Below the pieces are notes generated by a model. The model saw only the letters and a program-made list of their open reading frames with translations. It was not told the origin of the DNA and made no database searches. The position numbers and the translations under genes are program-made. 64,000 nt of DNA, from positions 1 to 64,000 of the IMG/VR virus record IMGVR_UViG_3300049893_001984; one strand, given 5' to 3'. Source of the DNA: a virus. Below, piece after piece: positions 18,936 to 64,000 of the stretch (the stretch's first letter is position 1; every line of letters starts with the position of its first letter).

Positions 18936-19667
18936 CTACTTATTTTCTTGTTCAGGAGTTTCCTTCTTAGGCTCTGCCTTTTCGGGGGTCTCCTTAGCTT
19001 TCGCCTTAGATTCTTCCTTGTTCTTCCTATAGTTTTCATATTGACGCTGACTTGCATAGCCTACGCCTGCACCTGCTCCGGCAACTGCTCCGCCACTTAT
19101 CATGCGCTGAAGAAGTTGACGCGCATTAACTTCGTCGGTCATCTTGCTTATGACGTCGTTTCTGTCTGCTATACGCAACATCTTCTGGTCAATAGGCGAA
19201 CCTGGAACATGTTTAGGCATATCAGCTCTTAGCTTTTTATTAGCTGCAGCAATGGAATGCGGCCGCTGAAGGCGCCAGAGATATTCACTAGCTGCTCCGC
19301 CGCCTGCACCTGTCAGACCGCCGAACAGTGCTCCGCGTCCGATAGACCCTATGGGGTTATCCTCGCGCTCTTCAGGAGAGGCTCCAAGGTAACCACCGAC
19401 AGCACCAGTGCCAGCCCCAATCAACCCACCTAGCAGTGTTCTTGACAACAGGGCACTATTGTAAGGGCGTAAGTGTTTAAACCTATGGCCGTCATCCGGT
19501 TTAACACCAGCTGCCGCAAAAGCGTCCGCAATAGCTTTCCCAGCGCCTCCACCACCTCCGCCAGCGGCACCAGGCGGGGGTGCGTCGATCGGAACAGTCT
19601 TAGCCGGTGACACGCCAGTAAGTAGCGGAGTTGAGGCTGTCTTTATCAGGTACTTTAGGTGGTTCAT
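18936..19667 (-). CDS. Glycine-zipper protein with MNHLKYLIK N-terminus
   Basis: 243 residues starting with the shared N-terminal peptide (MNHLKYLIKTA). It has a PPPGAAGGGGGGAG linker. Several Gly-zipper segments follow (LLGGLIGAGTGAVGGYLGAS; GALFGGLTGAGGGAASEYLW; ISGGAVAGAGAGVGYASQ) that could insert into membranes. The C-terminal tail is Lys/Glu-rich and disordered. This is the pattern expected of an internal virion protein ejected with DNA. Its location in the tail module, away from the other carriers of the peptide, is notable. Confidence 0.7.
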   Translation of the reverse strand: MNHLKYLIKTASTPLLTGVSPAKTVPIDAPPPGAAGGGGGGAGKAIADAFAAAGVKPDDGHRFKHLRPYNSALLSRTLLGGLIGAGTGAVGGYLGASPEEREDNPIGSIGRGALFGGLTGAGGGAASEYLWRLQRPHSIAAANKKLRADMPKHVPGSPIDQKMLRIADRNDVISKMTDEVNARQLLQRMISGGAVAGAGAGVGYASQRQYENYRKNKEESKAKAKETPEKAEPKKETPEQENK

Positions 19668-24714: not shown

Positions 24715-24985
24715 TTTTGCCTTCCTTCCATTCTTCGCCTTCTTCGTTTTCCATATCTTCCATTACGCCCTTAACTACCATTTTAAGGTATACCATTTCG
24801 TCGCCAGACATGTAAGGAGTGGAAAATATTTCCACCTCAACATTTGAAGTGCCCACCTCTTTCAACGCCCGTATAGCTTCTGTGCACATACCAAAAAGGG
24901 CGCATAGCCCAGCTATGTTAACTTCAACAGAAGGTCCTGATCCTGTTTGAGTTACAACAAGCTTCGGTAGATCCTCGTCGGTCAT
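24701..24985 (-). CDS. Small acidic protein next to the sigma factor
   Basis: 94 residues. Beta-alpha-beta-like (LVVTQTGSGPSVEVNIAGLC; VEVEIFSTPYMSGDEMVYLK) with a very acidic C-terminus (EDMENEEGEEWKEGKNGEP). It overlaps the sigma-factor gene end by four bases (ATGA), so the two are translationally coupled. A partner or antisigma role is conceivable but unsupported by any motif. Confidence 0.65.
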   Translation of the reverse strand: MTDEDLPKLVVTQTGSGPSVEVNIAGLCALFGMCTEAIRALKEVGTSNVEVEIFSTPYMSGDEMVYLKMVVKGVMEDMENEEGEEWKEGKNGEP

Positions 24986-25686
24986 AACTCGATCCCCTGC
25001 AGATCACTCATTTGCTTGGCTATTCTCGCTGCCCGCTGCGACACAGCGGATGGTGTCAGGTTCAATCTCTTAGCAATGTCGTTAGTTGAAAGCTTTGACT
25101 TGCCGTTATACCCGGTACGCCACTCCAGTATCTTCTGATCTATTGGGTGTAAGTCGTGGTGCAGATACTCCATGAGTATTTGGTTATGATCAGGCTTCTC
25201 TGTTCCAGGGTAGAACACTCCTTCGTCACCTTCGTCGTTCTCTGTAAGCTGGCTTTCAATATACTCGCCACCTTGATGCTTACGGATGTGACGCAACCGT
25301 TTCATAGACAACCCAGAGTGGTCAGCTAGCTCCTGGTCGCTAGGCTCTCTGTTAAATTGGTCTTGGAACTTCTGGTAACTTTGGTTCATGTTATACAGGT
25401 CAGCCTGTATACGCTCTGGGACATGTACTGCTGTGGTCGACTCTTTGTGGATACGGGACAAGGGCTGAAGCTGCGTCATTAAATGCGTGTTAAGCTTTGT
25501 ACCCTTGGACGGGTCATAGCTCTTGAACGCTTTAATAGCCAGCATCTTGGCATGAGGTTTCATGGCGGAGTTTCCCTGCGCATAAGACTGCACACCAGAG
25601 TTAAGGGTGGGGGCTGCCTTGTCTAACAGCTTACCCATGTTTTCTGGCGTAGGGTTCTTCTTCCAAATTTCAAATTCTTGTTCCAT
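24982..25686 (-). CDS. Phage-encoded sigma-70-family factor (FliA-like)
   Basis: 234 residues, compact like FliA. Region 2 (about 43-92): KMLAIKAFKSYDPSKGTKLN then THLMTQLQPL, matching the F-DPS-G-x-F-x-T/Y signature of sigma region 2.2-2.4. HVPERIQ marks the start of region 3. Region 3 (about 105-138): FNREPSDQELADHSGLSMKR. Region 4 (about 165-230): a helix-turn-helix of the form STNDIAKRLNLTPSAVSQRA (200-219). Region 1.1 is absent. Region 2.1 is very short (about 40 residues precede the 2.2-like part). It sits inside the baseplate genes rather than with the polymerase. Confidence 0.85.
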   Translation of the reverse strand: MEQEFEIWKKNPTPENMGKLLDKAAPTLNSGVQSYAQGNSAMKPHAKMLAIKAFKSYDPSKGTKLNTHLMTQLQPLSRIHKESTTAVHVPERIQADLYNMNQSYQKFQDQFNREPSDQELADHSGLSMKRLRHIRKHQGGEYIESQLTENDEGDEGVFYPGTEKPDHNQILMEYLHHDLHPIDQKILEWRTGYNGKSKLSTNDIAKRLNLTPSAVSQRAARIAKQMSDLQGIEL

Positions 25687-46464: not shown

Positions 46465-47916
46465 TTACACTTTAATGTAGTTACGCATTACAAGCAAGGT
46501 GTTAGTTATTGGATCGTTACCCGTGAGACTAGCAAACGACAGCTGATACTTTACGTACTCCTTGGCCAGCTCAGCCGCTTTCACGGAGCAAGAAGCGGTT
46601 TTAACTGATCCAAGGTTCTTAAAAGCAGGCTCATCTCCACGTACCGTGGCGGCTAAAACCCTGCGCTGAACTTTATTCTCTGCGATAGAGTAGTCGTTTT
46701 GCAACTCCTCGGCTACCTTTACCGCCGACAAAGGGTATACATTAGTTGGGCTGTAAGCACAACTATCTATACAAGTTTCCAAGTCGAAGTTGCTTATATT
46801 AGAGTACATACCAGGAAGCAAAGCTTCAACCTCTGAAGCTTCTTTATAACTCCCTTGGCCTGTAAGGGTAAGGAAATCCATTACAGATAACGGAATCTTA
46901 GCAGAACCAAGAGCGCTAAGGGCGTGGGCAGTCTTGTGCGACTTCAACTCTTCCATAGCTTTACTTGGTATGTTCTTGGTGCAACAGCCCAAGGCTAGCT
47001 TGTTTGCCAGGTGCTTGTTGTCAGCACCAGCAGCTACGGCTTCGATCTTCTTCTCAATCTCAGCCAGCTTTTTGGCGGCAGAGAGCTTAACGGCGGCGTA
47101 CTTGGAAGATACGCCAAGGAGTTCGACTGGAGCCGATACCCCCAGCTCTTCTGCCAGCTCAGCTCCGCCAATTGGCCGCTCCAAAACAGAAGCAACCTTC
47201 TGCAGGGACCAAGCTATTCGGTCTGCAGGGCGGACTACCTTTGATATATCAAAGAAGGTGGGCTGGTCGTTAATAGCAAAAACCTGGTGCCCACTCTTAA
47301 TAATAGAAGTCATGTGGTCTCGCAGGTGCTCGCAGTATTCCCCGCGATGCTTTGCTTTGTTACCACAGATAGAACAAATATCGTAAGGAACCTTGGCAGC
47401 CATCGAGAATGGGATGTCTTTACCAGAAGCAAGCTTCTGCAAGTCACCTTCCCACTCTTTATCGTGAGGAACCTTTATGACAAGTTCGCCGCGATGCATG
47501 TCTTTATTATAAGCAGCCGCCTTTATCTGTCCGATAGACTTGGCAGGGTCGTCGTTCTTGTGATGCTTATAGACATGCCCGTGCTTCATAAACGTGCTGT
47601 CGTGCCGACCTATTAGGCCGTCAACCATGTCGTAGTACCCAGGCTGACCCGGCTTAGGGAAAGGGATGGTGAAGCGAGCTTGTTTCTCGTTGAACCCGTC
47701 ACCATTCCTGTTATTGCCGAACATCTCCATAGCACCAAGGGAGATCAAATGAATAAGGCTGTGACCAGGCTCTGGCCGAAGCTCGGCCATCTTAGGAGTG
47801 AACAATGCAGCACGTTTCTGCATCCACGATCGATCTACGCCCCTGGAATGCACATCCATAAGACGTGCAACCGGGGTTCCAAAATCGAATGAGTCGCTGG
47901 TTATAACCTTGATCAT
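46465..47916 (-). CDS. Prohead-protease-like protein (HK97 S78 family, inferred)
   Basis: 483 residues, long for a protease. Residues 67-75 are GNNRNGDGF. H118-H119 (VYKHHKNDDPAKSIGQI) fit the catalytic-His and DP-x-x-S-IG region. S171 (KDIPFSMAAKV) fits the catalytic Ser in the KGVSIG-like strand, as in HK97-type proteases. Two Cys pairs follow (CSICGNKA at 181-188; YCEHL at 194-198), a zinc-knuckle-like addition. The C-terminal 270 residues are helical and probably another domain. The call rests on motif order; no active-site test is possible here. Confidence 0.65.
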   Translation of the reverse strand: MIKVITSDSFDFGTPVARLMDVHSRGVDRSWMQKRAALFTPKMAELRPEPGHSLIHLISLGAMEMFGNNRNGDGFNEKQARFTIPFPKPGQPGYYDMVDGLIGRHDSTFMKHGHVYKHHKNDDPAKSIGQIKAAAYNKDMHRGELVIKVPHDKEWEGDLQKLASGKDIPFSMAAKVPYDICSICGNKAKHRGEYCEHLRDHMTSIIKSGHQVFAINDQPTFFDISKVVRPADRIAWSLQKVASVLERPIGGAELAEELGVSAPVELLGVSSKYAAVKLSAAKKLAEIEKKIEAVAAGADNKHLANKLALGCCTKNIPSKAMEELKSHKTAHALSALGSAKIPLSVMDFLTLTGQGSYKEASEVEALLPGMYSNISNFDLETCIDSCAYSPTNVYPLSAVKVAEELQNDYSIAENKVQRRVLAATVRGDEPAFKNLGSVKTASCSVKAAELAKEYVKYQLSFASLTGNDPITNTLLVMRNYIKV

Positions 47917-47927
47917 GTTTAACCCCG

Positions 47928-48569
47928 TTAGTAAGTCATGTGGACCTTGTCAACACGCTTATCTCCTGTGCTTGCGATTGTTGCAAGCCTTCTTTGCATG
48001 TTGTCAATGTAGCTAGATAGGTACTGGGACCTCGGTATGTTAGGCAGGTCACCTATAGCTGGGCCTGTGTGATGGTTGTGTATATACGCGCCAGGTGATC
48101 GCAGCTGATAGGCAGGCTCAGCAACATGGCTAAGGCTGATAGGCCCTGGCATTATACCTGGTTTTACCACCCTTTCAGAAACGAGCTTATTAACAGTCTT
48201 ACGCGCATCAGATTTCGCCGTTTGTAAGGGATCTCCGCCATAATTATTCCACCCTGTGGCCATGTTTTTATTAAGCGCCTCAAGGCCTGGCTTCAAGGAT
48301 AGCGTAGCGCTACGGTCTCCAGCAGCAGGTGCCATGGTGTGGCTCACCATGTTCATAACGCTTTTAACTCTATCGGATGGAAGGCTAGATATTGCGTCTA
48401 ACTCTCTTTCTCTGCGCCACTGTGGGCCGTACCTGTGATGTTCGTCTCTATACTGGATTGGAACTGGTTTACCTTTGTTAGCTTCGCTCATAAGACGAGA
48501 GCGCATGGCGTGAAATATGACATTATCAGGGTTTAGCGCCGTTTTGATAAGATAGCCTAGATGGTTCAT
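47928..48569 (-). CDS. Protein with MNHLGYLIK N-terminus
   Basis: 213 residues starting with the shared peptide (MNHLGYLIKTA). The rest is charged and helical (KGKPVPIQYRDEHHRYGPQW ... DNMQRRLATIASTGDKR). No other motif. Located just upstream of the protease gene in map order, between head genes. Confidence 0.65.
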   Translation of the reverse strand: MNHLGYLIKTALNPDNVIFHAMRSRLMSEANKGKPVPIQYRDEHHRYGPQWRRERELDAISSLPSDRVKSVMNMVSHTMAPAAGDRSATLSLKPGLEALNKNMATGWNNYGGDPLQTAKSDARKTVNKLVSERVVKPGIMPGPISLSHVAEPAYQLRSPGAYIHNHHTGPAIGDLPNIPRSQYLSSYIDNMQRRLATIASTGDKRVDKVHMTY

Positions 48570-55187: not shown

Positions 55188-57032
55188 TTAGTAACCAACG
55201 CCATCAGGCGGTTTACCAAACTCGGTGCCTTGTGCCAGTGCTGGTATATACGAAGTTCCGTGCACATTGGAATCTCTGCCGCGATGGGTTGACTCAAGCA
55301 ACCCTTTCTTAGACTGCCATCCGCCCAACCTGACCATCCAATCATCAGCGTGCGACAGTGTTTCCATCGCGCGCTGCATTTCAGGTTGAAACGATGGCGG
55401 GTCCACGTGCGCCTTAACAGTTCCGAACTTATGCTCGTCTAAAGTCTTTATTACACTTGGTGTTATCTTTGTTCCTATAGAGTAATGTAACGCCGGTTGC
55501 TCTAGATACAAGCCTCTGGCTTGTTTAGGCTCCAGTGTTTTATGTCCAAAACGAGGTTTGTAGTCGCGGACAAGATTATCGTACTCAACGACGTCATCAG
55601 GAACTGTGTCATGTGGGCCGTCAATATCAGTAACCTGTACGTGATTTATAAGCCCCCTCGATAACAATTCCACGTTCCGTCTATGTGCAGCGAGTCCTGA
55701 CTCCTTTAGTGTTTTGTGCAGGTAATCAGTGAAGTAACGTCTCCCTTCACCAATCCCTTTGTGACGGACAATGTCTGCTGGGTTAGGTATGCCTGTAGAC
55801 ATAATGTCACCAGCTTCCACTTCATCACCTTTCTTTACGTGAATATTTTCATCCGCAGGTGCCCAGTGCTGTGTGTTACCCACATAAATGTAGTTACCGC
55901 CTTGGGGGGCTGGCTCAATCCTCTCTACCCTGCCTTCTACCTGTGAAATGGCGGCTGCCCCTGCAAACGTTTTAGGAACTTGGACTAACTGAGTAATAAG
56001 GTCTAAGCCTTGCTTCGTCTGCTTCTTTACACCAGATACAAGACCGCCTCCATGCTTTGTTCCAAGTTGGCCCTGTCCGATCGGTTCACTTATTGCCTGC
56101 GCGGCTGCGATTCCGGGGTTATCACCGATTGGTGAAAATCCGTTTCTTTCGTGAATGCCAACACACTTCTGGCAAACACCGTGAGAAGACTGACATGAGA
56201 TAGGTGAGCGTACAACTATTTTCTTGTCGCCAAGCGTCTGAAGGTGCTTCGGAGTCAATATAGTTCCAGCCGCAAGTCCACCTGCTGGAAAAGCTAGAAC
56301 AGCCCCCTCATTCTCGGGGTCGCTAGCACTAACTGGCATACCATTAACTGTTCCACAATCCTTCTCGGTAATCATGAGCCGGTGTGCGGCCAAGGCCATC
56401 TGTTTACCAAGGAACCCCGCTTTAGGGGTGGCAAACTTAGTGGCAACGCTGCCCTTTCTAGCGCCGTAAGAACCAGCCCAGTACTGAACAGGGTCAAGCC
56501 CCTCGGCATAGCTGGAAAGAATGGGGATGGGGATAGGCTGATCCTTATGGTCAGCCACCATCAAATCTCCAGCTGTCATAGACCGAAACTGTGCTTTATT
56601 ACCGCGTGACCCGGAGTGGACCTGGACTGCCAATGAGTTATTGTTCTTGAAGTGTTCTTCAAAGTTGGCCTTTTCTACAGGATCCACATACGGGACTACA
56701 GTAGACACAATTTCCTTATCTTTGGCAGTCTGGTCTATTGGTTTGGTTAAAATATTATTTATCTTACCCTGCAACTCATCGCGTAACTTCTTTACGCCCT
56801 CTGGCGGCTTAAGGTTAGAAAGGGAGAAAGAAGTCTCTCTCCCGTGCGTAGTTATGATCTTTGTGGCTATGTTATGCAGCTTCTGATTGATCTCTGAGTA
56901 TTTGTCTGGATAACGTTCGGCCACCTGGGTCATCAAATTCTTGAGACCCTTTTTATCAATAACGCGGCTGCTGTCCCGAAGGTCTTCGGGCAGTGCCTCG
57001 TTAAGCATAAGCTGGCCTACAGTCATTTCCAT
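55188..57032 (-). CDS. RNA polymerase beta-prime, C-terminal half
   Basis: 614 residues, beginning at the position of E. coli beta-prime TVGRALL (here MTVGQLML). Bridge-helix region: SGSRGNKAQFRS (140-151) and GARKGSVATKF (190-200). Zinc site: C226, then C280-x6-C287-x2-C290, the four cysteines of the beta-prime zinc site. Trigger loop: AAQAISEPIGQGQLGTKHGG (310-329). Beta-prime normally continues from the NADFDGD part; that half is instead on the separate gene at 60657-64000. The split falls between the catalytic double-psi barrel and the bridge helix. Confidence 0.9.
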   Translation of the reverse strand: MEMTVGQLMLNEALPEDLRDSSRVIDKKGLKNLMTQVAERYPDKYSEINQKLHNIATKIITTHGRETSFSLSNLKPPEGVKKLRDELQGKINNILTKPIDQTAKDKEIVSTVVPYVDPVEKANFEEHFKNNNSLAVQVHSGSRGNKAQFRSMTAGDLMVADHKDQPIPIPILSSYAEGLDPVQYWAGSYGARKGSVATKFATPKAGFLGKQMALAAHRLMITEKDCGTVNGMPVSASDPENEGAVLAFPAGGLAAGTILTPKHLQTLGDKKIVVRSPISCQSSHGVCQKCVGIHERNGFSPIGDNPGIAAAQAISEPIGQGQLGTKHGGGLVSGVKKQTKQGLDLITQLVQVPKTFAGAAAISQVEGRVERIEPAPQGGNYIYVGNTQHWAPADENIHVKKGDEVEAGDIMSTGIPNPADIVRHKGIGEGRRYFTDYLHKTLKESGLAAHRRNVELLSRGLINHVQVTDIDGPHDTVPDDVVEYDNLVRDYKPRFGHKTLEPKQARGLYLEQPALHYSIGTKITPSVIKTLDEHKFGTVKAHVDPPSFQPEMQRAMETLSHADDWMVRLGGWQSKKGLLESTHRGRDSNVHGTSYIPALAQGTEFGKPPDGVGY

Positions 57033-58696
57033 TAATGCATCGCTCCCATGGATCCAGGTACGGTACCTAAGTGTTTAGCACCCGGAGCCGTCCTACCAAT
57101 TGTGGTAGTTTCCTTCGAAGTTCCACCAGGCCCGCTGCTCTCGGTTGTAGTTGATGTGCCAGTGACCGGCGTGTTTCGCATCCTCTGTTTATCTTTGTAA
57201 GCCCGCTCAGCCTCAGATCTAAGGCCTGGATTGCTTAACCTGCTGAGGTCAGGCTTTTGTGTTATGTTACTTCCTATAGGCTTGTTGTTTATCTCCGTCG
57301 TCGTTGTGGTCGACTTAGCCGCTGGCGCTTGTGTTTCCGGTGGAGATGACATAGGCGCCGTTGCTGCCGCTGGTTCTTGTGTGGCTGCGGGTGCCTGCAA
57401 AGGAGCGGAAGGGGCTGCTTGCGCTCCAGCCATACCGCCAGTCATACCAGTAGCAGTACTACCCGCCATACCTCCAGTCATGCTAGCAGCTGTACCACCA
57501 GCCATACCGCCAGTCATGCCAGTAGTCGTACTACCGGCTGCACTACCCGCCGTACTACCAGCCGTACCACCAGCTGTGCTTCCCCCAGGACCTTCCGGCT
57601 TAGGTACAGCCGCATCAGCAGGTTTACTAGCCGTCGCACCTGAATTCGTCGGTGCTCCTGCCATACCAGACATACCACCCATCGCAGCGCTCATGCCAAT
57701 ACTCTTACCCTTTGCCTGGTTATTAGCCAATGGGGGGGTTGGCACTACGCTTTCTCTAGGATGCCCTTCATGCTCTTTCTCTGAGATCCCAGGGCGGGTA
57801 TACCGTTCTTTCAGTGCAGTTTTCAACTCAGGGAACTTTGCGGCCAACCGCTCTTTCTCTTTCTGGCTAGCTCCACCGTACATACGAAGAACCTGTCCTG
57901 GGTCCATATTATTGGCCAAAGCAGTTTCAATCTTTTGATCTATGCCACTTCTGCGTGCGTCACGCATCTTCAGCATTTCATCTCTTCCGCCTTCGTTCCA
58001 TGAGCGATCTATCTTCTCGGCGGCAGTATGCGGATCTTTACCGAACAGACCCTGCCAGGCCATTGAACCTAAGCCTTTTACAGTTCCTGTAATGGGAGAC
58101 AACCAACCGCCACCCATCGTTGTGTCTTTGTATGTCTTCTGTCCAGCTTCGAACGCGTCTCTAAAATCCCCATCACCCCAAAGAAACCCAGCCAGCTTGC
58201 TCATTGCTTCTGCGTCTTCTTTGTCGAAACCATTTTCAGCGCAAAATCTGTCAATGCCAAACTGAAAAGCGGCCATCTTGTTGGCTAAAACTATTGGGTT
58301 TAAAGGAGCTGAAACAGCTCCAGTAACTGGATCTTGAACGATGACCGGCTGTCCACCGTTAAGATCCTGCATTTTTGCTTGCTCGTAAAGCATTTGTCGC
58401 TGACGTTCTTTAATAATCTCTTTTTGCATCTTATATGTATCTTCGTACATCTTAGCTGCTTGGTCGTGCATCTGCGCAACATTAGCTACCTGCTGCTGAG
58501 TCGTGTCCATGCCTACTGCTTTATTGGCCATAACCTGCATACCAGTTCCGAGGCCAGTTTGTACGGCCAAGGTGGGGCCTTGCTCTTTAGTGATGCTCCA
58601 AATAGCAGCGGGTGCCTTTCGCACGTTTTTAATAATATCACGTACGAAAGCTTCCTTGGTAAGGTTTAGCTTTGAGATCTCGTATGGGTTATGCAT
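57032..58696 (-). CDS. Low-complexity Gly/Ser/Ala/Met protein between polymerase genes
   Basis: 554 residues. A helical N-terminal 240 residues include coiled-coil-like runs (QMHDQAAKMYEDTYKMQKEI). From about 345 come long low-complexity repeats (MTGGMAG-S/G-T-A at about 405-445, and STAGGTAGSTAGSAAGS). The C-terminus is a Ser/Thr/Pro-rich tail. It is the only protein in the window with this Met-Thr-Gly repeat. Internal virion or scaffold role is possible. Confidence 0.6.
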   Translation of the reverse strand: MHNPYEISKLNLTKEAFVRDIIKNVRKAPAAIWSITKEQGPTLAVQTGLGTGMQVMANKAVGMDTTQQQVANVAQMHDQAAKMYEDTYKMQKEIIKERQRQMLYEQAKMQDLNGGQPVIVQDPVTGAVSAPLNPIVLANKMAAFQFGIDRFCAENGFDKEDAEAMSKLAGFLWGDGDFRDAFEAGQKTYKDTTMGGGWLSPITGTVKGLGSMAWQGLFGKDPHTAAEKIDRSWNEGGRDEMLKMRDARRSGIDQKIETALANNMDPGQVLRMYGGASQKEKERLAAKFPELKTALKERYTRPGISEKEHEGHPRESVVPTPPLANNQAKGKSIGMSAAMGGMSGMAGAPTNSGATASKPADAAVPKPEGPGGSTAGGTAGSTAGSAAGSTTTGMTGGMAGGTAASMTGGMAGSTATGMTGGMAGAQAAPSAPLQAPAATQEPAAATAPMSSPPETQAPAAKSTTTTTEINNKPIGSNITQKPDLSRLSNPGLRSEAERAYKDKQRMRNTPVTGTSTTTESSGPGGTSKETTTIGRTAPGAKHLGTVPGSMGAMH

Positions 58697-58896
58697 CTTG
58701 CATTCAATCCTATACCAAGGCCCTTTAATACATTAACGAAGTCGGGCTCCCCGGCACTACATGTATATATACTACCCTTATCTAGCTTCTGCACAACGAG
58801 TATCGGGTTATTGAAATCATCGTAAACTACAATGGAGCGTAAGTCATTCAAAATGACCGGCTCCGATAGGTCGGAGCCGGTTGTCCGTGTGTGCAC
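58666..58896 (-). CDS. Small protein between internal-protein genes
   Basis: 76 residues, GTG start at 58894-58896 with AGAGAGGTG 5 nt upstream. It overlaps the start of the 554-residue gene by 31 nt. Beta-alpha pattern (DLRSIVVYDDFNNPILVVQK then EPDFVNVLKGLGIGLN). Not recognised. Confidence 0.65.
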   Translation of the reverse strand: MHTRTTGSDLSEPVILNDLRSIVVYDDFNNPILVVQKLDKGSIYTCSAGEPDFVNVLKGLGIGLNARCITHTRSQS

Positions 58897-58918
58897 GATT
58901 ACACCTCTCTAAACCGGG

Positions 58919-59806
58919 TTAACCGCGTATAGCTCTCAGTATGTTCTTGATAGTTTTACGCCGGTCCTGGTCATGCTCGTAGGAAGCTTGAACCTGCATT
59001 CCGCCAGGAGCAGGCTGGCCACCTGCACTAGGGTCTGCCGGAGGAGCAGCGCCCATTGACGGGTCTCCGCCAACCATAGGAGTAGGTCCAGCCATATCAG
59101 GGGAAACCCCTGCCCCAATTGGGGCTGGCGCACCGCCAGGTTGATCTTGTCCACCAGCCGAGTCCTGACTCCCACCACTAGACTGGGGGGCAGAACCGCC
59201 TCCAATAGGGAGACCAAGTGCGCCAGCAATCTGCAGCATAATCTCTTTCATGGAGCGCACTTCTTTTTCTACGGCTTCCATGCGTATGTCGTTCTTGGCG
59301 CCCTTACCAGCTCCTTTAGCTCCGCCAGAGTTGGGGTCGTTAGGTGCACCTCCGCCTCCACCCTGCTGTCCGCCCATTGCTTGAGCTGCTTGCATAATTA
59401 GCTGCTGAAGATCCTGAGGCTGAAGCATAATAGGGGCGCCCGGTCCGCCACCTATCGCTGCCGGGTCTCCACCTTGGCTGGGGTCGGCTGGGGCTCCGCC
59501 GCCTTGACTGGGGTCGGGGGGCATCCCACCTGCTGAGGGGTCTTGGGGCGGCGGACCTCCAGGACCAGGAGGCGGCCCACCACCCATAGGGCCAGGAGCA
59601 CCACCACCAGGAGGCATGCCAGCAGGAGGCGGTCCTCCGGCCCCCATTGGGACGAACGCCCTTTTCTGGAGAGTTTCAGCTGTCTTTGCCGCGTTTGTTG
59701 CTGTTGCTGCCACAGCTGCCGCTGCAGCCTGCTTTGTGTGCTGCTGTGCGTAAGCCATTCGTGCTGCGAGTCTGGCTTTTTGGAATACATCGAATTCGCC
59801 TTTCAT
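58919..59806 (-). CDS. Gly/Pro/Gln-rich protein, probable internal protein
   Basis: 295 residues. The N-terminus is a helix rich in Ala and Gln (KARLAARMAYAQQHTKQAAA). From residue 55 come Gly/Pro repeats (GGPPPGPGGPPPQDPSAGGM). A helix at 130-205 (LQQLIMQAAQAMGGQQ ... EAVEKEVRSMKEIMLQIAGA) may oligomerise it. The C-terminus is basic (HDQDRRKTIKNILRAIRG). Similar low-complexity style to the 220- and 341-residue proteins. Confidence 0.6.
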   Translation of the reverse strand: MKGEFDVFQKARLAARMAYAQQHTKQAAAAAVAATATNAAKTAETLQKRAFVPMGAGGPPPAGMPPGGGAPGPMGGGPPPGPGGPPPQDPSAGGMPPDPSQGGGAPADPSQGGDPAAIGGGPGAPIMLQPQDLQQLIMQAAQAMGGQQGGGGGAPNDPNSGGAKGAGKGAKNDIRMEAVEKEVRSMKEIMLQIAGALGLPIGGGSAPQSSGGSQDSAGGQDQPGGAPAPIGAGVSPDMAGPTPMVGGDPSMGAAPPADPSAGGQPAPGGMQVQASYEHDQDRRKTIKNILRAIRG

Positions 59807-59809
59807 GTC

Positions 59810-60061
59810 TTACCTTTCAAAACGGTTTAAGTTTCTGGCAATCCCTGCTCTAACTGGCGCGCGGCGCGCACCAGGTTTCTCGTTTGCAACAAGCTGATCT
59901 ATCGTCTTCTGCTTATCTGCATCCCACACATCCTCTATTGGATTACCATTACTGTCTTTGGCCGTCTGGGTCAAGGTATGATCCATAGCGGCACGACGAG
60001 CCTTCCAAGCCTCAGCCTGTTTCTGTAGTGCCATGCTTATAAGGTATCGGCAGTGGTTCAT
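59810..60061 (-). CDS. Small protein with MNHCRYLIS N-terminus
   Basis: 83 residues starting MNHCRYLISMA, the most divergent copy of the shared peptide (Cys for Leu, Ser for Lys). The rest is basic and helical (EAWKARRAAMDHTLTQTAKD; RRAPVRAGIARNLNRFER). The Arg-rich tail could bind DNA, fitting an internal head protein. It overlaps the next gene by four bases (ATGA). Confidence 0.7.
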   Translation of the reverse strand: MNHCRYLISMALQKQAEAWKARRAAMDHTLTQTAKDSNGNPIEDVWDADKQKTIDQLVANEKPGARRAPVRAGIARNLNRFER

Positions 60062-60654
60062 TCTTGTCTTCCGCTAGCGCGCAGGGATTCAGCTATGAGC
60101 TTAGCTCGCTCTTCCTTACCATATCGTTGGGCGAGGTAACCAAGGCCTCCGCCAGCAGCAGTGCCTATCAAGGCGCCAATGCCTGGACGGCTAGAGTGAA
60201 GTTCGCCTAAAACTGCACCCAAGCTGCCCCCTGTTCCAGCGCCAAGGGCTGGTATTAGCCAAGGATTACGTGAACTTTCAGCTGCTTCGCCTAAAGCCAT
60301 AATTTCCTCTGGCTTATACTTGTGTTTCTTGTCTATACGCCCTTTGAGATGGTCGTTATATAGCGTGTCTACGTTATGGTCTTGTAGTTTGTTTTCTAGA
60401 TAACCAATACCAGCGCCAATACCTCCACCTACAGCCGCTCCAAGCCATGGCTTAGGATTGTCAAAACCATGGCTGGCGATGGCGCCTAACCCAGCACCTG
60501 CAAGTGAATTACCTCCAATGGTTAAAGCACGGGATAGGGGAGGGTTCATTTTATTCCGCATATACTCAGCAGCAGCGCCTTCGTCCAAATACAGGTCTGG
60601 TTCGTGAACAAACCCACTAACTGCGGATTTAATTAGATAGGACAAGTGTTTCAT
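60058..60654 (-). CDS. Glycine-zipper protein with MKHLSYLIK N-terminus
   Basis: 198 residues starting MKHLSYLIKSA. Gly-zipper segments: SLAGAGLGAIASHGFDN, GAAVGGGIGAGIGYLEN, GAGTGGSLGAVLGELHS and GALIGTAAGGGLGYLAQ. This is the same design as the 243-residue protein at 18936-19667 (N-terminal peptide plus Gly zippers), though the two share little else. Possible membrane-active ejection protein. Immediately downstream of the polymerase fusion gene. Confidence 0.7.
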   Translation of the reverse strand: MKHLSYLIKSAVSGFVHEPDLYLDEGAAAEYMRNKMNPPLSRALTIGGNSLAGAGLGAIASHGFDNPKPWLGAAVGGGIGAGIGYLENKLQDHNVDTLYNDHLKGRIDKKHKYKPEEIMALGEAAESSRNPWLIPALGAGTGGSLGAVLGELHSSRPGIGALIGTAAGGGLGYLAQRYGKEERAKLIAESLRASGRQE

Positions 60655-60656
60655 TG

Positions 60657-63600
60657 TTAACCTTTCACCACGACCTTATCGTGGATATCAATATCGCCAC
60701 GCTGGTATGCGGCTATAACATCCGCCTTTGAGCGGAAAACCCTGGGCGGCTTATCGTTCTTTGAATTGCTAGCCAAATACAGACCCATCAGGAACTCATT
60801 GCGCGGCAAATAATGTACACCAAAGTCACGCGTAGACTTCAGGTTAACACTTGGCAGCATTTTCTCTCGTGCTTCTTTTACCGCTTCTTCAGTCACAGGT
60901 ACATGATAATTCATAGCGTCGCCGTCAAAATCAGCGTTGAATCCATTACACACGACTGGAGGAAGCTGCAAAGTGTGGCCTTTACTAAGTTTAGGGAACG
61001 CTGCCATGAAGCCATACCTGTGGTAAGTTGGCGCACGGTTAATCATAACCGGTCGCTCTTTCATCTCTTCCAACATCGTCTTACGAGCCAGGTCTGTCTG
61101 GTTGGCAACTGATTTAGCTGCCTCAACGGCGGGCAAACCTTGCCGAATAAGGCGGCGTACAATAAACGGACGGTAGATCGTCCAAGCCTTAGGCTCCGGC
61201 AACCCCACCTCATCCATACTCAGGTCAGGGTTAGGTGTGATAGCTGCGCGGCCAACCATGTCCACAGGCATACCAAGGACACGGCGCTGGAACATACCCA
61301 TCTTGGGGCTGTTTCCAAAGACGTGGGCCAACAGACCCTTAACCTTCTTCTCCTGCGTCTTCTCCTGCACAGGGTCACCCAAGCCTGACACAGCCTTAAC
61401 AGCGTTATAAAGCTGCAACCGTTCTTCGTTAAGGTGCTCATCGCCAACCTGACCAGACAGGTCCTTAAGGGCCTGGTTAGAGGTCATGAGATCCTTGTAC
61501 AGAAGGTTAGCGTCGGCAACCAAAGGAAGATCCTTGAACTTGGTGATTGGCCTGAAGTTAGGGGGTATCACCGGAACCTTATTCATCATAAGTTCCTTGG
61601 GGTGTGTACCTTCCTTCTTCAAGGTCTCCAAGTAACCCAGGACCTTTACAGCGTTATCACGCTTACTCTTGGCACCGTCTTTAATAATGCTCTTATAGCG
61701 TTCAATTTCACCATCAACGTTTATGCGCCCCAACGCAGCTTGAATAGCTTTTGGTCCAGTTGCACCACCAAGCTGTTCTTGCCCGCCCAGGATTGCCTCA
61801 AACTTCTTTCCAGTCAGTCCAAGCATGCGCCTAACCGGTTCTTCAAACACAGGGTTAGGCATGGGTTCGTGCAGGTTGATGTGTCCCCATCTATTACCAC
61901 CGTGGCCACCAGTAATAGTACGGTCAAACAGGCCACCAGGAATCTCAGTCATGTCGTTCTGATCGACAGTCTTGTTTTCCTTGATCTCACCACTGCTCAT
62001 CTCGTCTACATGCTTGTCTGTAAGAGCGAACAGATGCAGCTTGTTGCCGTCCTTTTCCACGTTTATGCCTGCGCCCTTCAGGTGGGCTAGGAACTTATTG
62101 TAGATCAGCGGTTCCTTAGGTGAAGGAGGGGTAAGCCCCATACGGAAGGCTTTCCAGTAGTCGTCATTGCGCTGACCACGGATAACCTGTGCTTCCCTAA
62201 GAACGTTAGGAACGCCGTGAGACAGCAGGGAGAAAGTCTCCATCTGGGAGATTCTCTTCGCACCCTCATCGCCGCCCCTGGCGGGAAGGCCCTCACTTGT
62301 GTACCCACCAACGTCTCTACCTTTACCTTTACCTTCTGCCAGGTGGTGCAGCTTCATCATGAAACGCTCACCAGTCAGAACCCCAGGTATTGACTTCCCT
62401 GTTTCAGGATCAACCAGGTCCTCTGTGTCCTTAAGCCCATGCTTAGCCAGCTCTTCTTGTACGTGGTCAACGCTAGCCTTACCTTTAAGACCAAACCCAG
62501 GCAGAAGAACAGGTTGTCCTGTCTTACGAGCGATCTTACCGAGCAGCGCTTCATACACCTGGCTGGGGTTGATACGGGAGATGATACCCAGGGAGTTAAG
62601 GATCAGTTCCAAGGGTTTGCCGTCTTTGGAGTGAGGCATCTGGTGGTCAGGGATAACCCGGCTGATAACACCCTTATCACCGAAGAACCCGGCCAGCTTA
62701 TCGCCCTCTTGGGCAGGGGCATGGCTCTTGACAGTGATGTTCCAATCACCGTTCTTGTTCTGTGTGACGTCGGTTACAACACCATCGTGTACGTGATCCC
62801 ATTCCATGGCTCCGTTGGAGAACATGGGTTTATGCCCTTTATGCACAGCGTCCTGCTGGCTGCGTCTAAGGGACAAGAACAGAGGATCTCCATGCTTAAC
62901 GACCGTGCCAACCTTCACCACACCGTTTTCATCGATAGGCTTCAGCTGGTTTGGTTTATAGGCCCCAGGATATAGTGACAGAAACTGTTTTCTGCCTAAC
63001 ACTGTTTCACCCGGAGTGTGTTCTAGCACGCGCTGATACATGTGCTCACTACGCAGGCGCTGGGCGGCTGACTCACTGATGATCACACCGTCTTCGAAGG
63101 CCAAACCCTTGTACGGCATATAGCCAGTACGCAGGTTAGTGCCCATGGCTATCTGGCCTTTGTCGTCCGTGTAGTTACTCTTGGCCAGGAGCTGGCCTTT
63201 GCCAACTGCGTCGCCAATCTTAACAACGGGCGTGTTGTGCAGGAACGTGTTATGGACGATCAACCCACCGCACACTGCAAAGTTCTCGGAGCCTTCCACA
63301 CAGAGGTCATAAACGAAGTCTTCGTTAGGGTGTGGGGTGATGTCCGTAATCAAATCCCACATAACATCGGACCTGCCCCACTTGCCGTAGGTGCCAGAAC
63401 CTTCTCTCAACCTATCCTTAGCTACAAATCCCAAAGAAGCGGTTTTGTATCTAAACATTGAAGCCGACTCAAACTCCTTGTACATAGCCTTTCTACCAGC
63501 TTTAGTTACTGGCACAGACTCAAAAGGAGATGCCCTGAACTTCTTCTTGAGTTTACTGGCAAACCTGGCTTGTTTGTCTGCGTAGAAGAACCAGCTATCC

Positions 63601-64000
63601 AACTTTCCAAGGTGTCTGCTAATTACTCTCAGACTGTAAACATCGCGCCAATTGGTATTTTCCAGGCGCTGCTCTTTATGTGCTCTGGTAGTGAAAATAC
63701 CAAGAGAAGCTAGTAAATCACACAGGTCGTCACGCAGCTGCTTGGAGACAGACGCGGCCCCTAGTTGTATGGCTCCATTGCTATCCGACCAAACACAACC
63801 ATCCCCGCCAAAGTACCCGCTGATAAGGCCTTGTTTAAATTCATTAGAGGCCGACAAGTACTTTTCAGGTATCCGCTTGTTGTGGGCAAGGTGACCGAAC
63901 GAGCTAGTAAGCCAATCGCACAAGGCGTGATCCGTCAAACACACAGAACCGCCATTGCGATAAGGCTCTCTACCGTTGGTTACTTTTCTAAGCAGGCTAA
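60657..64000 (-). CDS. RNA polymerase beta/beta-prime fusion protein with intein (N-terminus outside window)
   Basis: The frame is open to the window edge. Counting from a GTG at 63942-63944, which is not the true start: residues 1-232 are an intein. Residues 233-605 are beta: NLRTGYMPYKGLAFEDGV (270-287), GDKLAGFFGDKGVISRVI (414-431) with both active-site Lys, and the MMKLHHLAEGKGKG end (529-542). From about 636 the chain becomes beta-prime without a stop: EIPGGLFDRTITGGHGG, RPVMINRAPTYHRYGFMA (964-981), and catalytic NADFDGD (1003-1009). It ends at VVVKG just before the part encoded at 55188-57032. The beta-prime N-terminal zinc ribbon is missing. The rest of beta should lie to the right of the window. 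Confidence 0.9.
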   Translation of the reverse strand, partial: SLLRKVTNGREPYRNGGSVCLTDHALCDWLTSSFGHLAHNKRIPEKYLSASNEFKQGLISGYFGGDGCVWSDSNGAIQLGAASVSKQLRDDLCDLLASLGIFTTRAHKEQRLENTNWRDVYSLRVISRHLGKLDSWFFYADKQARFASKLKKKFRASPFESVPVTKAGRKAMYKEFESASMFRYKTASLGFVAKDRLREGSGTYGKWGRSDVMWDLITDITPHPNEDFVYDLCVEGSENFAVCGGLIVHNTFLHNTPVVKIGDAVGKGQLLAKSNYTDDKGQIAMGTNLRTGYMPYKGLAFEDGVIISESAAQRLRSEHMYQRVLEHTPGETVLGRKQFLSLYPGAYKPNQLKPIDENGVVKVGTVVKHGDPLFLSLRRSQQDAVHKGHKPMFSNGAMEWDHVHDGVVTDVTQNKNGDWNITVKSHAPAQEGDKLAGFFGDKGVISRVIPDHQMPHSKDGKPLELILNSLGIISRINPSQVYEALLGKIARKTGQPVLLPGFGLKGKASVDHVQEELAKHGLKDTEDLVDPETGKSIPGVLTGERFMMKLHHLAEGKGKGRDVGGYTSEGLPARGGDEGAKRISQMETFSLLSHGVPNVLREAQVIRGQRNDDYWKAFRMGLTPPSPKEPLIYNKFLAHLKGAGINVEKDGNKLHLFALTDKHVDEMSSGEIKENKTVDQNDMTEIPGGLFDRTITGGHGGNRWGHINLHEPMPNPVFEEPVRRMLGLTGKKFEAILGGQEQLGGATGPKAIQAALGRINVDGEIERYKSIIKDGAKSKRDNAVKVLGYLETLKKEGTHPKELMMNKVPVIPPNFRPITKFKDLPLVADANLLYKDLMTSNQALKDLSGQVGDEHLNEERLQLYNAVKAVSGLGDPVQEKTQEKKVKGLLAHVFGNSPKMGMFQRRVLGMPVDMVGRAAITPNPDLSMDEVGLPEPKAWTIYRPFIVRRLIRQGLPAVEAAKSVANQTDLARKTMLEEMKERPVMINRAPTYHRYGFMAAFPKLSKGHTLQLPPVVCNGFNADFDGDAMNYHVPVTEEAVKEAREKMLPSVNLKSTRDFGVHYLPRNEFLMGLYLASNSKNDKPPRVFRSKADVIAAYQRGDIDIHDKVVVKG
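63249..64000 (-). other. Intein with LAGLIDADG-type homing endonuclease (N-terminal part outside window)
   Basis: The coding sequence at the right end is intein: a dodecapeptide-like motif (LISGYFGGDG), the KRIPEKYL segment preceding it, and the C-terminal splice block VYDLCVEGSENFAVCGG then LIVHN, ending with Asn at 63249-63251. The +1 extein residue is Thr. It is inserted in beta just before the PVVKIGDAVGKGQLLA segment (E. coli PCVSLGEPV), close to the active centre. The N-terminal splice half and first endonuclease motif must lie beyond the window. Confidence 0.85.

What the first reader, a model, noticed from the sequence alone, without database searches (positions are those of the whole stretch)
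55188..64000. RNA polymerase with beta fused to the front of beta-prime and the rest of beta-prime as a separate gene
Seen: one continuous frame carries beta C-terminal motifs (GDKLAG, DKGVISR, MMKLHHLAEG) and then beta-prime N-terminal motifs up to NADFDGD, with no stop. The bridge helix, trigger loop and zinc cysteines are in another gene about 3.6 kb downstream, with five genes between. Known: phiKZ-like and AR9-like phages also have split beta and beta-prime, but as separate beta and beta-prime pieces. Fusions of beta to beta-prime are known only in some bacteria such as Helicobacter and Wolbachia. I do not know of a phage with a beta-C/beta-prime-N fusion plus a beta-prime split at this position.
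Basis: partly seen in the sequence, partly recalled or inferred. Interest (0 to 1): 0.9.

Follow-up and report, generated by a model that had tools for sequence, protein, structure and literature searches.

The report
Fused, re-cut RNA polymerase in phage
This large phage carries its own bacterial-type RNA-copying enzyme in which two normally separate chains are joined into one and the joined chain is cut again at a new place; hundreds of related phage sequences and at least four isolates carry relatives of it, and one studied isolate packs the enzyme into its virus particles, yet the arrangement itself seems not to have been described.

Summary
On the minus strand, one ORF (contig 60657-66608, 1983 aa; window 60657-64000) reads through full-length beta into the front of beta' past NADFDGD. 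The rest of beta' is a separate 614-aa gene (55188-57032), 3.6 kb downstream.

The arrangement is not unique. Salmonella phage Arash and Vibrio phages D69/D181/D148 have it, as do about 94 loci examined. Another 86 loci carry beta and the whole of beta' as one chain, mostly about 2000-2260 aa. Rooted on bacterial RNAP, the fused-and-split form is one well-supported clade nested among single-chain forms. The likeliest history is fusion first, then one clean break in a short loop after the catalytic barrel.

Arash proteomics finds fusion, C-terminal piece and sigma in virions at similar counts per residue. The best reading is an alpha-less, sigma-directed RNAP packaged in the virion for early transcription. 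Neither the Arash paper nor the mReC paper mentions this fusion or re-cut. Verdict: real, a new variant of known phage multisubunit RNAPs, not categorically new.

The parts
60657..64000 (-). RNAP fusion gene (beta + beta'-N), part inside the window; gene continues to contig position 66608 (1983 aa in all)
63249..64000 (-). LAGLIDADG intein in beta (residues 715-1120; contig 63249-64466), part inside the window; Ser at the N-splice side, HN|T at the C-splice side
   Evidence: Pfam PF14890 E=2.7e-14, PF14528 E=6.2e-11; absent at the same site in Arash and D69; same site occupied in L022-L024
62049..63248 (-). beta C-terminal half (Rpb2_6, active-site lysines GDK and GDKGV)
   Evidence: K184 and K192 of the modelled segment invariant in 65 rows
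62013..62054 (-). beta / beta-prime junction KDGNKLHLFALTDK (residues 1519-1532)
   Evidence: alignment to Salmonella beta end and beta' start; ordered in the model, pLDDT 84-96
60660..62021 (-). beta-prime N-terminal part (residues 1530-1983), up to E. coli beta' ~550
60918..60938 (-). catalytic NADFDGD (residues 1891-1897)
   Evidence: the three Asp invariant in 65 rows
55188..57032 (-). separate beta-prime C-terminal gene, 614 aa, starts at E. coli beta' ~573
56385..56492 (-). bridge helix (residues 181-216)
   Evidence: AF2 model helix H181-216
55980..56117 (-). trigger loop helices (residues 306-351), invariant Gln320 and His327
24982..25686 (-). sigma factor, 234 aa, orthologue of Arash gp10, which is found in Arash virions
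   Evidence: PF04539 over cut-off, phrog_351; 26% identity to gp10; present in 26 of 28 related genomes, own included
57032..60654 (-). four genes between the two RNAP pieces (57032-58696, 58919-59806, 59810-60061, 60058-60654); 60058-60654 is a Gly-zipper protein, the others have no named domain (59810-60061 not searched)
   Evidence: not conserved as a set in relatives

Best explanation
It is the catalytic core of a phage-encoded, bacterial-type, two-barrel RNA polymerase made of two chains: a beta/beta'-N fusion (about 1577 aa after the intein is removed) and a beta'-C protein. With a dedicated phage sigma factor and without alpha subunits it forms a holoenzyme that is packaged in the virion, delivered with the DNA, and transcribes early phage genes. 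Historically beta and beta' fused end to end in an ancestor of this phage group; in one clade the fused chain then broke once in a short loop just after the catalytic double-psi barrel of beta', moving the chain boundary. The two pieces would fold back into a normal crab-claw enzyme. Shown: the gene arrangement, intact catalytic residues, fold, conservation, sigma presence, no detected alpha, phylogeny. Taken from the literature for a relative: presence in virions. Inferred: assembly, promoter recognition, early-gene role, intein splicing, direction of the history.
For: Uninterrupted ORF and domains. Full-length homology, same junction and same break in Arash and D69. Architecture survey of 238 loci: 94 fused+split, 86 single-chain, 4-5 three-piece. 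Fused+split clade nested in single-chain forms, with 4, 5 or 8 outgroup rows, support 99-100. The break replaces a ~4-residue linker seen in single-chain relatives. Catalytic Asp, Lys and trigger-loop His invariant. Confident models matching bacterial beta' and cyanobacterial gamma. Sigma orthologue in 26 of 28 genomes, alpha in none, cellular controls ring. Arash fusion (gp206), C piece (gp216) and sigma (gp10) in purified virions, 2.3, 2.0 and 2.0 spectra per residue (PMC10585845; division).
Against: No biochemistry on any member. Virion presence is shown only for Arash (35% identical), whose authors also allow carry-over of abundant proteins. Spectral counts are a rough measure. The AU test does not reject single-chain forms as one clade (p 0.22), so nesting is favoured, not proven; the intact beta' of bacteria still makes the break the derived state. 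In vivo intactness of the fusion chain is not shown by tryptic peptides.
Confidence: 0.75

Rival explanations
1. It is a non-virion RNAP, made after infection for middle or late genes; its detection in Arash particles is carry-over of an abundant protein.
For: The Arash authors themselves raise this possibility (PMC10585845). Many non-structural enzymes were also detected in the particles.
Against: gp206 has the highest spectral count of all and matches gp216 and the sigma per residue. The second Arash sigma (gp196) is not in the table. The window's RNAP genes and sigma lie among baseplate-wedge, protease-like and other structural orthologues.
Confidence: 0.2
2. The split form is ancestral and the single-chain forms arose by re-joining beta'-C to the fusion.
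For: AU test does not reject a tree with all single-chain rows together (p 0.22). The C gene lies downstream on the same strand wherever measured, so re-joining is physically possible.
Against: Outgroup bacteria have intact beta'; single-chain lineages surround the split clade in three trees; this history needs one more event.
Confidence: 0.12
3. Assembly error, frameshift or pseudogene.
For: A few related loci do show frameshift-like breaks (L090, L115, L151).
Against: Same arrangement in isolates and about 94 loci, uniform break point, catalytic residues invariant.
Confidence: 0.01

Closest known systems
Salmonella phage Arash gp206 / gp216 / gp10 (OQ632216; PMC10585845)
   Same: Beta+beta'-N in one ORF, beta'-C in a separate downstream gene, same junction and break, orthologous sigma; all three found in virions
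   Different: 35% identity; no intein at this site; catalytic loop reads YAADYDGD instead of FNADFDGD; the paper annotates the genes as beta and beta' and does not mention fusion or split
Vibrio phages D69, D181, D148 (OZ195729, OZ196140, OZ196545)
   Same: Same two-gene arrangement
   Different: Annotated as hypothetical proteins; in D181 (and D148 by its matching coordinates) an insert with a homing endonuclease interrupts the fusion gene, a group I intron in D181
mReC, multi-subunit RNAP-encoding Caudovirales (Weinheimer and Aylward 2020, PMC7481178)
   Same: Tailed phages, some over 200 kb, with bacterial-like beta and beta' branching outside Bacteria; NADxDGD present
   Different: Paper does not report fusion or re-cutting of this enzyme; its detected capsids are PF07068, which is not found here
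phiKZ/AR9-like jumbo phage vRNAP and nvRNAP
   Same: Multisubunit phage RNAP without alpha; beta' split after its DPBB; one version packaged in the virion
   Different: Beta is also split and not joined to beta' (PMC7598289, PMC7824862); no sigma is found in that group (PMC7824862)
Natural rpoB-rpoC fusions of Helicobacter and Wolbachia
   Same: Beta C-terminus joined to beta' N-terminus (own knowledge, not tested here)
   Different: Full beta' retained, alpha present, cellular; resembles the single-chain relatives rather than the window
crAss-like phage and YonO single-chain RNAPs
   Same: Two barrels on one chain; a virion RNAP is described for a crAss-like phage
   Different: Highly divergent, no detectable COG0085/0086 similarity for the crAss enzyme (PMC7481178)
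Cyanobacterial gamma / beta' split (rpoC1/rpoC2)
   Same: beta' broken after the catalytic barrel; gamma is the top structural hit
   Different: Break lies further downstream: the first ~21 residues of the phage C piece fall in gamma; beta is separate

Membership tests
Arash-like fused-and-split RNAP group | beta and beta'-N in one ORF | tested here: met
Arash-like fused-and-split RNAP group | beta'-C as a separate downstream same-strand gene with the same break point | tested here: met
Arash-like fused-and-split RNAP group | falls in the same clade of the concatenated RNAP tree | tested here: met
   SH-aLRT 99
Arash-like fused-and-split RNAP group | orthologous sigma, portal and terminase | tested here: met
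Arash-like fused-and-split RNAP group | RNAP in the virion | not testable with these tools
   known only for Arash (PMC10585845)
mReC | RNAP clade separate from Bacteria | tested here: met
   but no sequences named as mReC could be placed in the tree
mReC | NADxDGD and length of at least 800 aa | tested here: met
mReC | capsid of family PF07068 (all 8 mReC capsids detected in that paper) | tested here: not met
   0 in own genome, Arash, D69 and 27 relatives; T4 control rings
mReC | TerL of PF03237 (all 17 mReC TerL with a Pfam hit) | tested here: inconclusive
   own TerL hits PF05876 and phrog_675, not PF03237; Arash and some relatives hit PF03237 weakly
phiKZ/AR9-like jumbo phage RNAP | beta split and not joined to beta' | tested here: not met
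phiKZ/AR9-like jumbo phage RNAP | no phage sigma | tested here: not met
Class 1 LAGLIDADG intein | splicing domain, homing domain, C-terminal HN and following Thr | tested here: met
   sequence; empty site in relatives
Class 1 LAGLIDADG intein | protein splicing occurs | not testable with these tools
   needs expression

The most novel reading that the evidence does not exclude
A large phage group ancestrally encodes a full-size bacterial-type RNAP as one continuous beta-beta' chain, with its own sigma and no alpha, packaged in the virion; the chain boundary was then moved by fission at one site in one clade and at a second site in a sub-clade. This would be a natural evolutionary series of fusion then re-cutting in a universal enzyme, undescribed until now.
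Probability: 0.6. Interest if true: 0.75.

Novelty: new variant of a known kind. Interest (0 to 1): 0.62.

Why it matters
RNA polymerase subunit boundaries are usually treated as fixed. This phage group shows them joined, re-cut at a new loop, and cut a second time in a sub-clade, without loss of the catalytic residues checked. It gives a ready series for testing how the enzyme assembles without alpha: joining beta to beta' may take over the assembly role that alpha has in bacteria. It also points to cultivated phages (Arash, Vibrio D69) in which a sigma-directed virion RNAP could be studied.

Tried and rejected
Records L014-L017 ('phage' contigs from wastewater or faeces) looked like unfused phage RNAP, but their beta' reads like ordinary bacterial beta'; used only as outgroup. 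The genome-contig scan gave mostly bacterial rpoC plus one phage fragment binned with a Flavobacteriales MAG (L239); it does not identify a host. The first single-sequence search found only one weak hit, so alignments were used. The joint alignment of the junction came out blank for Arash and D69 but worked for the window against Salmonella; the three-way alignment A1 covers the junction for Arash and D69. Literature searches for a described beta/beta'-N fusion in phages found none in the held library; subscription journals are mostly not covered and supplements could not be read. L151, a fused+split locus outside the main clade, breaks at the catalytic-loop intein and may be a frameshift.

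Full report
CHECK OF THE OBSERVATION. The window is positions 1-64000 of a 192,334-base IMG/VR virus record. Pfam gives Rpb2_3, Rpb2_6, Rpb1_1 (below its cut-off) and Rpb1_2 in order along it, plus an intein splicing domain and a LAGLIDADG domain. The second gene, 55188-57032 (614 aa), carries Rpb1_5. Between them lie four same-strand genes of at least 83 aa and one doubtful 76-aa ORF.

THE INTEIN. Residues 715-1120 form a LAGLIDADG intein (FNRK|SVTGN...IVHN|TFLHN; boundaries from the sequence). Arash and D69 lack it at the same point, and L022-L024 have an insert there. Inserts of more than 150 aa, many with intein-like ends, occur in 40 of 195 classified loci at eight or more places, including directly after NADFDGD and in the trigger-loop region. 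After splicing the window's fusion would be about 1577 aa.

JUNCTION AND BREAK. The join is short: beta's final GINVE (Salmonella GINIE) is followed by 11 residues and then the beta' stretch TDKHVDEMSSGE (Salmonella SPDMIRSWSFGE), so about the first 20 residues of beta' are missing. Beta' between the N-terminal motif and about residue 148 (B. subtilis numbering) is not matched, so the N-terminal zinc region is missing or unrecognisable. The fusion ends at about E. coli beta' 550 and the C piece starts at about 573. In 90 single-chain loci the same place holds a linker of median 4 residues; in 100 fused+split loci the fusion ends a median of 3 residues after the conserved part and the C piece starts at a median model position of 6. 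The break is therefore a clean cut in a short loop. The cyanobacterial gamma/beta' break lies downstream: A8 positions 22-358 match cyanobacterial beta' from residue 5, so the first ~21 residues belong to gamma there.

STRUCTURE. AlphaFold2 with 65 rows gives the 863-residue post-intein fusion a mean pLDDT of 88.2, with the junction at 84-96. With 64 rows the C piece reaches 91.1, with a long bridge helix and trigger helices. Foldseek matches the fusion to cyanobacterial gamma and bacterial beta' (E 2e-33) and the C piece to Thermus beta' (E 2e-29, TM 0.73 by query). The Asp triad, two active-site Lys and trigger-loop His are invariant across the alignments.

RELATIVES. Four deposited phage genomes encode the same arrangement: Salmonella phage Arash and Vibrio phages D69, D181 and D148. 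In D181 the fusion gene is interrupted by an Rfam group I intron (E 2e-26), beside which lies an annotated homing endonuclease gene. IMG/VR holds at least 331 loci similar to the fusion. Among 238 loci examined, 94 are fused+split, 86 are complete beta-beta' single chains (some loci overlap on the same contig), and 4-5 have a further break inside beta'-N. In three single-chain genomes checked whole, the beta'-C match lies in open frames of 2056, 2188 and 2152 aa. Single-chain loci carry orthologues of this phage's portal (64 of 90) and terminase (51 of 90) nearby, so they are phages of the same wider group.

HISTORY. Trees of the concatenated, insert-free parts, rooted on bacterial RNAP, put the main fused+split and three-piece forms in one clade (support 99-100) whose sister is single-chain (L161, L213, also L162 in the larger tree), with other single-chain lineages outside. 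One fused+split locus, L151, falls elsewhere and may be a frameshift. The AU test does not exclude all single-chain rows being one clade (p 0.22). Under both topologies the outgroup has intact beta', so one fusion followed by one fission is the shortest history. This is an inference.

FUNCTION. In Arash, the fusion (gp206), C piece (gp216) and sigma gp10 are all in purified particles, with 100%, 89% and 100% coverage (PMC10585845). Dividing spectra by length gives 2.3, 2.0 and 2.0, against 4.3 for the capsid protein and 1.5 for the portal; this is rough but fits a packaged 1:1:1 complex. The window encodes the orthologue of gp10 (24982-25686), found in 26 of 28 related genomes of both architectures. 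Alpha (PF01193) is found in none of 28, with 13 of 14 cellular controls positive. Omega was not tested. The RNAP genes lie among virion-protein orthologues. Best reading: an alpha-less, sigma-directed virion RNAP for early genes.

NOVELTY. The Arash paper names the genes beta and beta' without comment on fusion (PMC10585845). The mReC paper mentions fusion only for crAssphage (PMC7481178). Jumbo-phage reviews describe split, unjoined subunits (PMC7598289; PMC7824862). I found no description of the beta/beta'-N fusion or of the single-chain relatives in the held library, which lacks many subscription papers. Membership of mReC is plausible from the RNAP but not claimed: the PF07068 capsid test is negative with a working T4 control.

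Noticed in passing
window 18936-19667, 47928-48569, 59810-60061, 60058-60654: Four proteins share an N-terminal motif M[NK]H..YLI(K).A; it may be a capsid-targeting or cleaved propeptide (compare the T4 capsid targeting sequence, from memory). A head-maturation-protease-like gene lies at 46465-47916 (weak phrog_18299 match).
   Followed up: partly
L011 and L012 (Arash, D69): The catalytic loop reads YAADYDGD / FAADYDGD: the Asn before the Asp triad (E. coli N458, which I recall as a contact to the ribose 2'-OH) is Ala. The window keeps NADFDGD.
   Followed up: no
L013 9446-9726: Group I intron, with a homing endonuclease gene beside it, inside the fusion gene of Vibrio phage D181; L142 is interrupted at the same model position (betaN 488/489).
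   Followed up: partly
L226, L228, L234, L210, L222, L124, L208 and others: Intein-like inserts sit directly after NADFDGD, after TPE in beta, inside GDK in beta and in the trigger-loop region; this RNAP family is an insertion hotspot.
   Followed up: partly
L297 4332-8143: A Roizmanbacteria contig has rpoC in two overlapping frames near the same place as the phage break; may be a frameshift or a real split.
   Followed up: no
L127, L135, L146, L156, L157: A sister clade of Arash has a second break inside beta'-N, giving three RNAP pieces: beta plus ~110 residues of beta', the catalytic barrel part, and beta'-C.
   Followed up: partly
L021 (PV081573, Acinetobacter phage vB_AbaM_3098): A 55.6-kb phage record carries a beta'-C-like gene; its partner pieces were not looked for.
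   Followed up: no
L239: A fused-and-split RNAP phage fragment is binned in a Flavobacteriales MAG; a weak hint of a Bacteroidota host for one relative.
   Followed up: no
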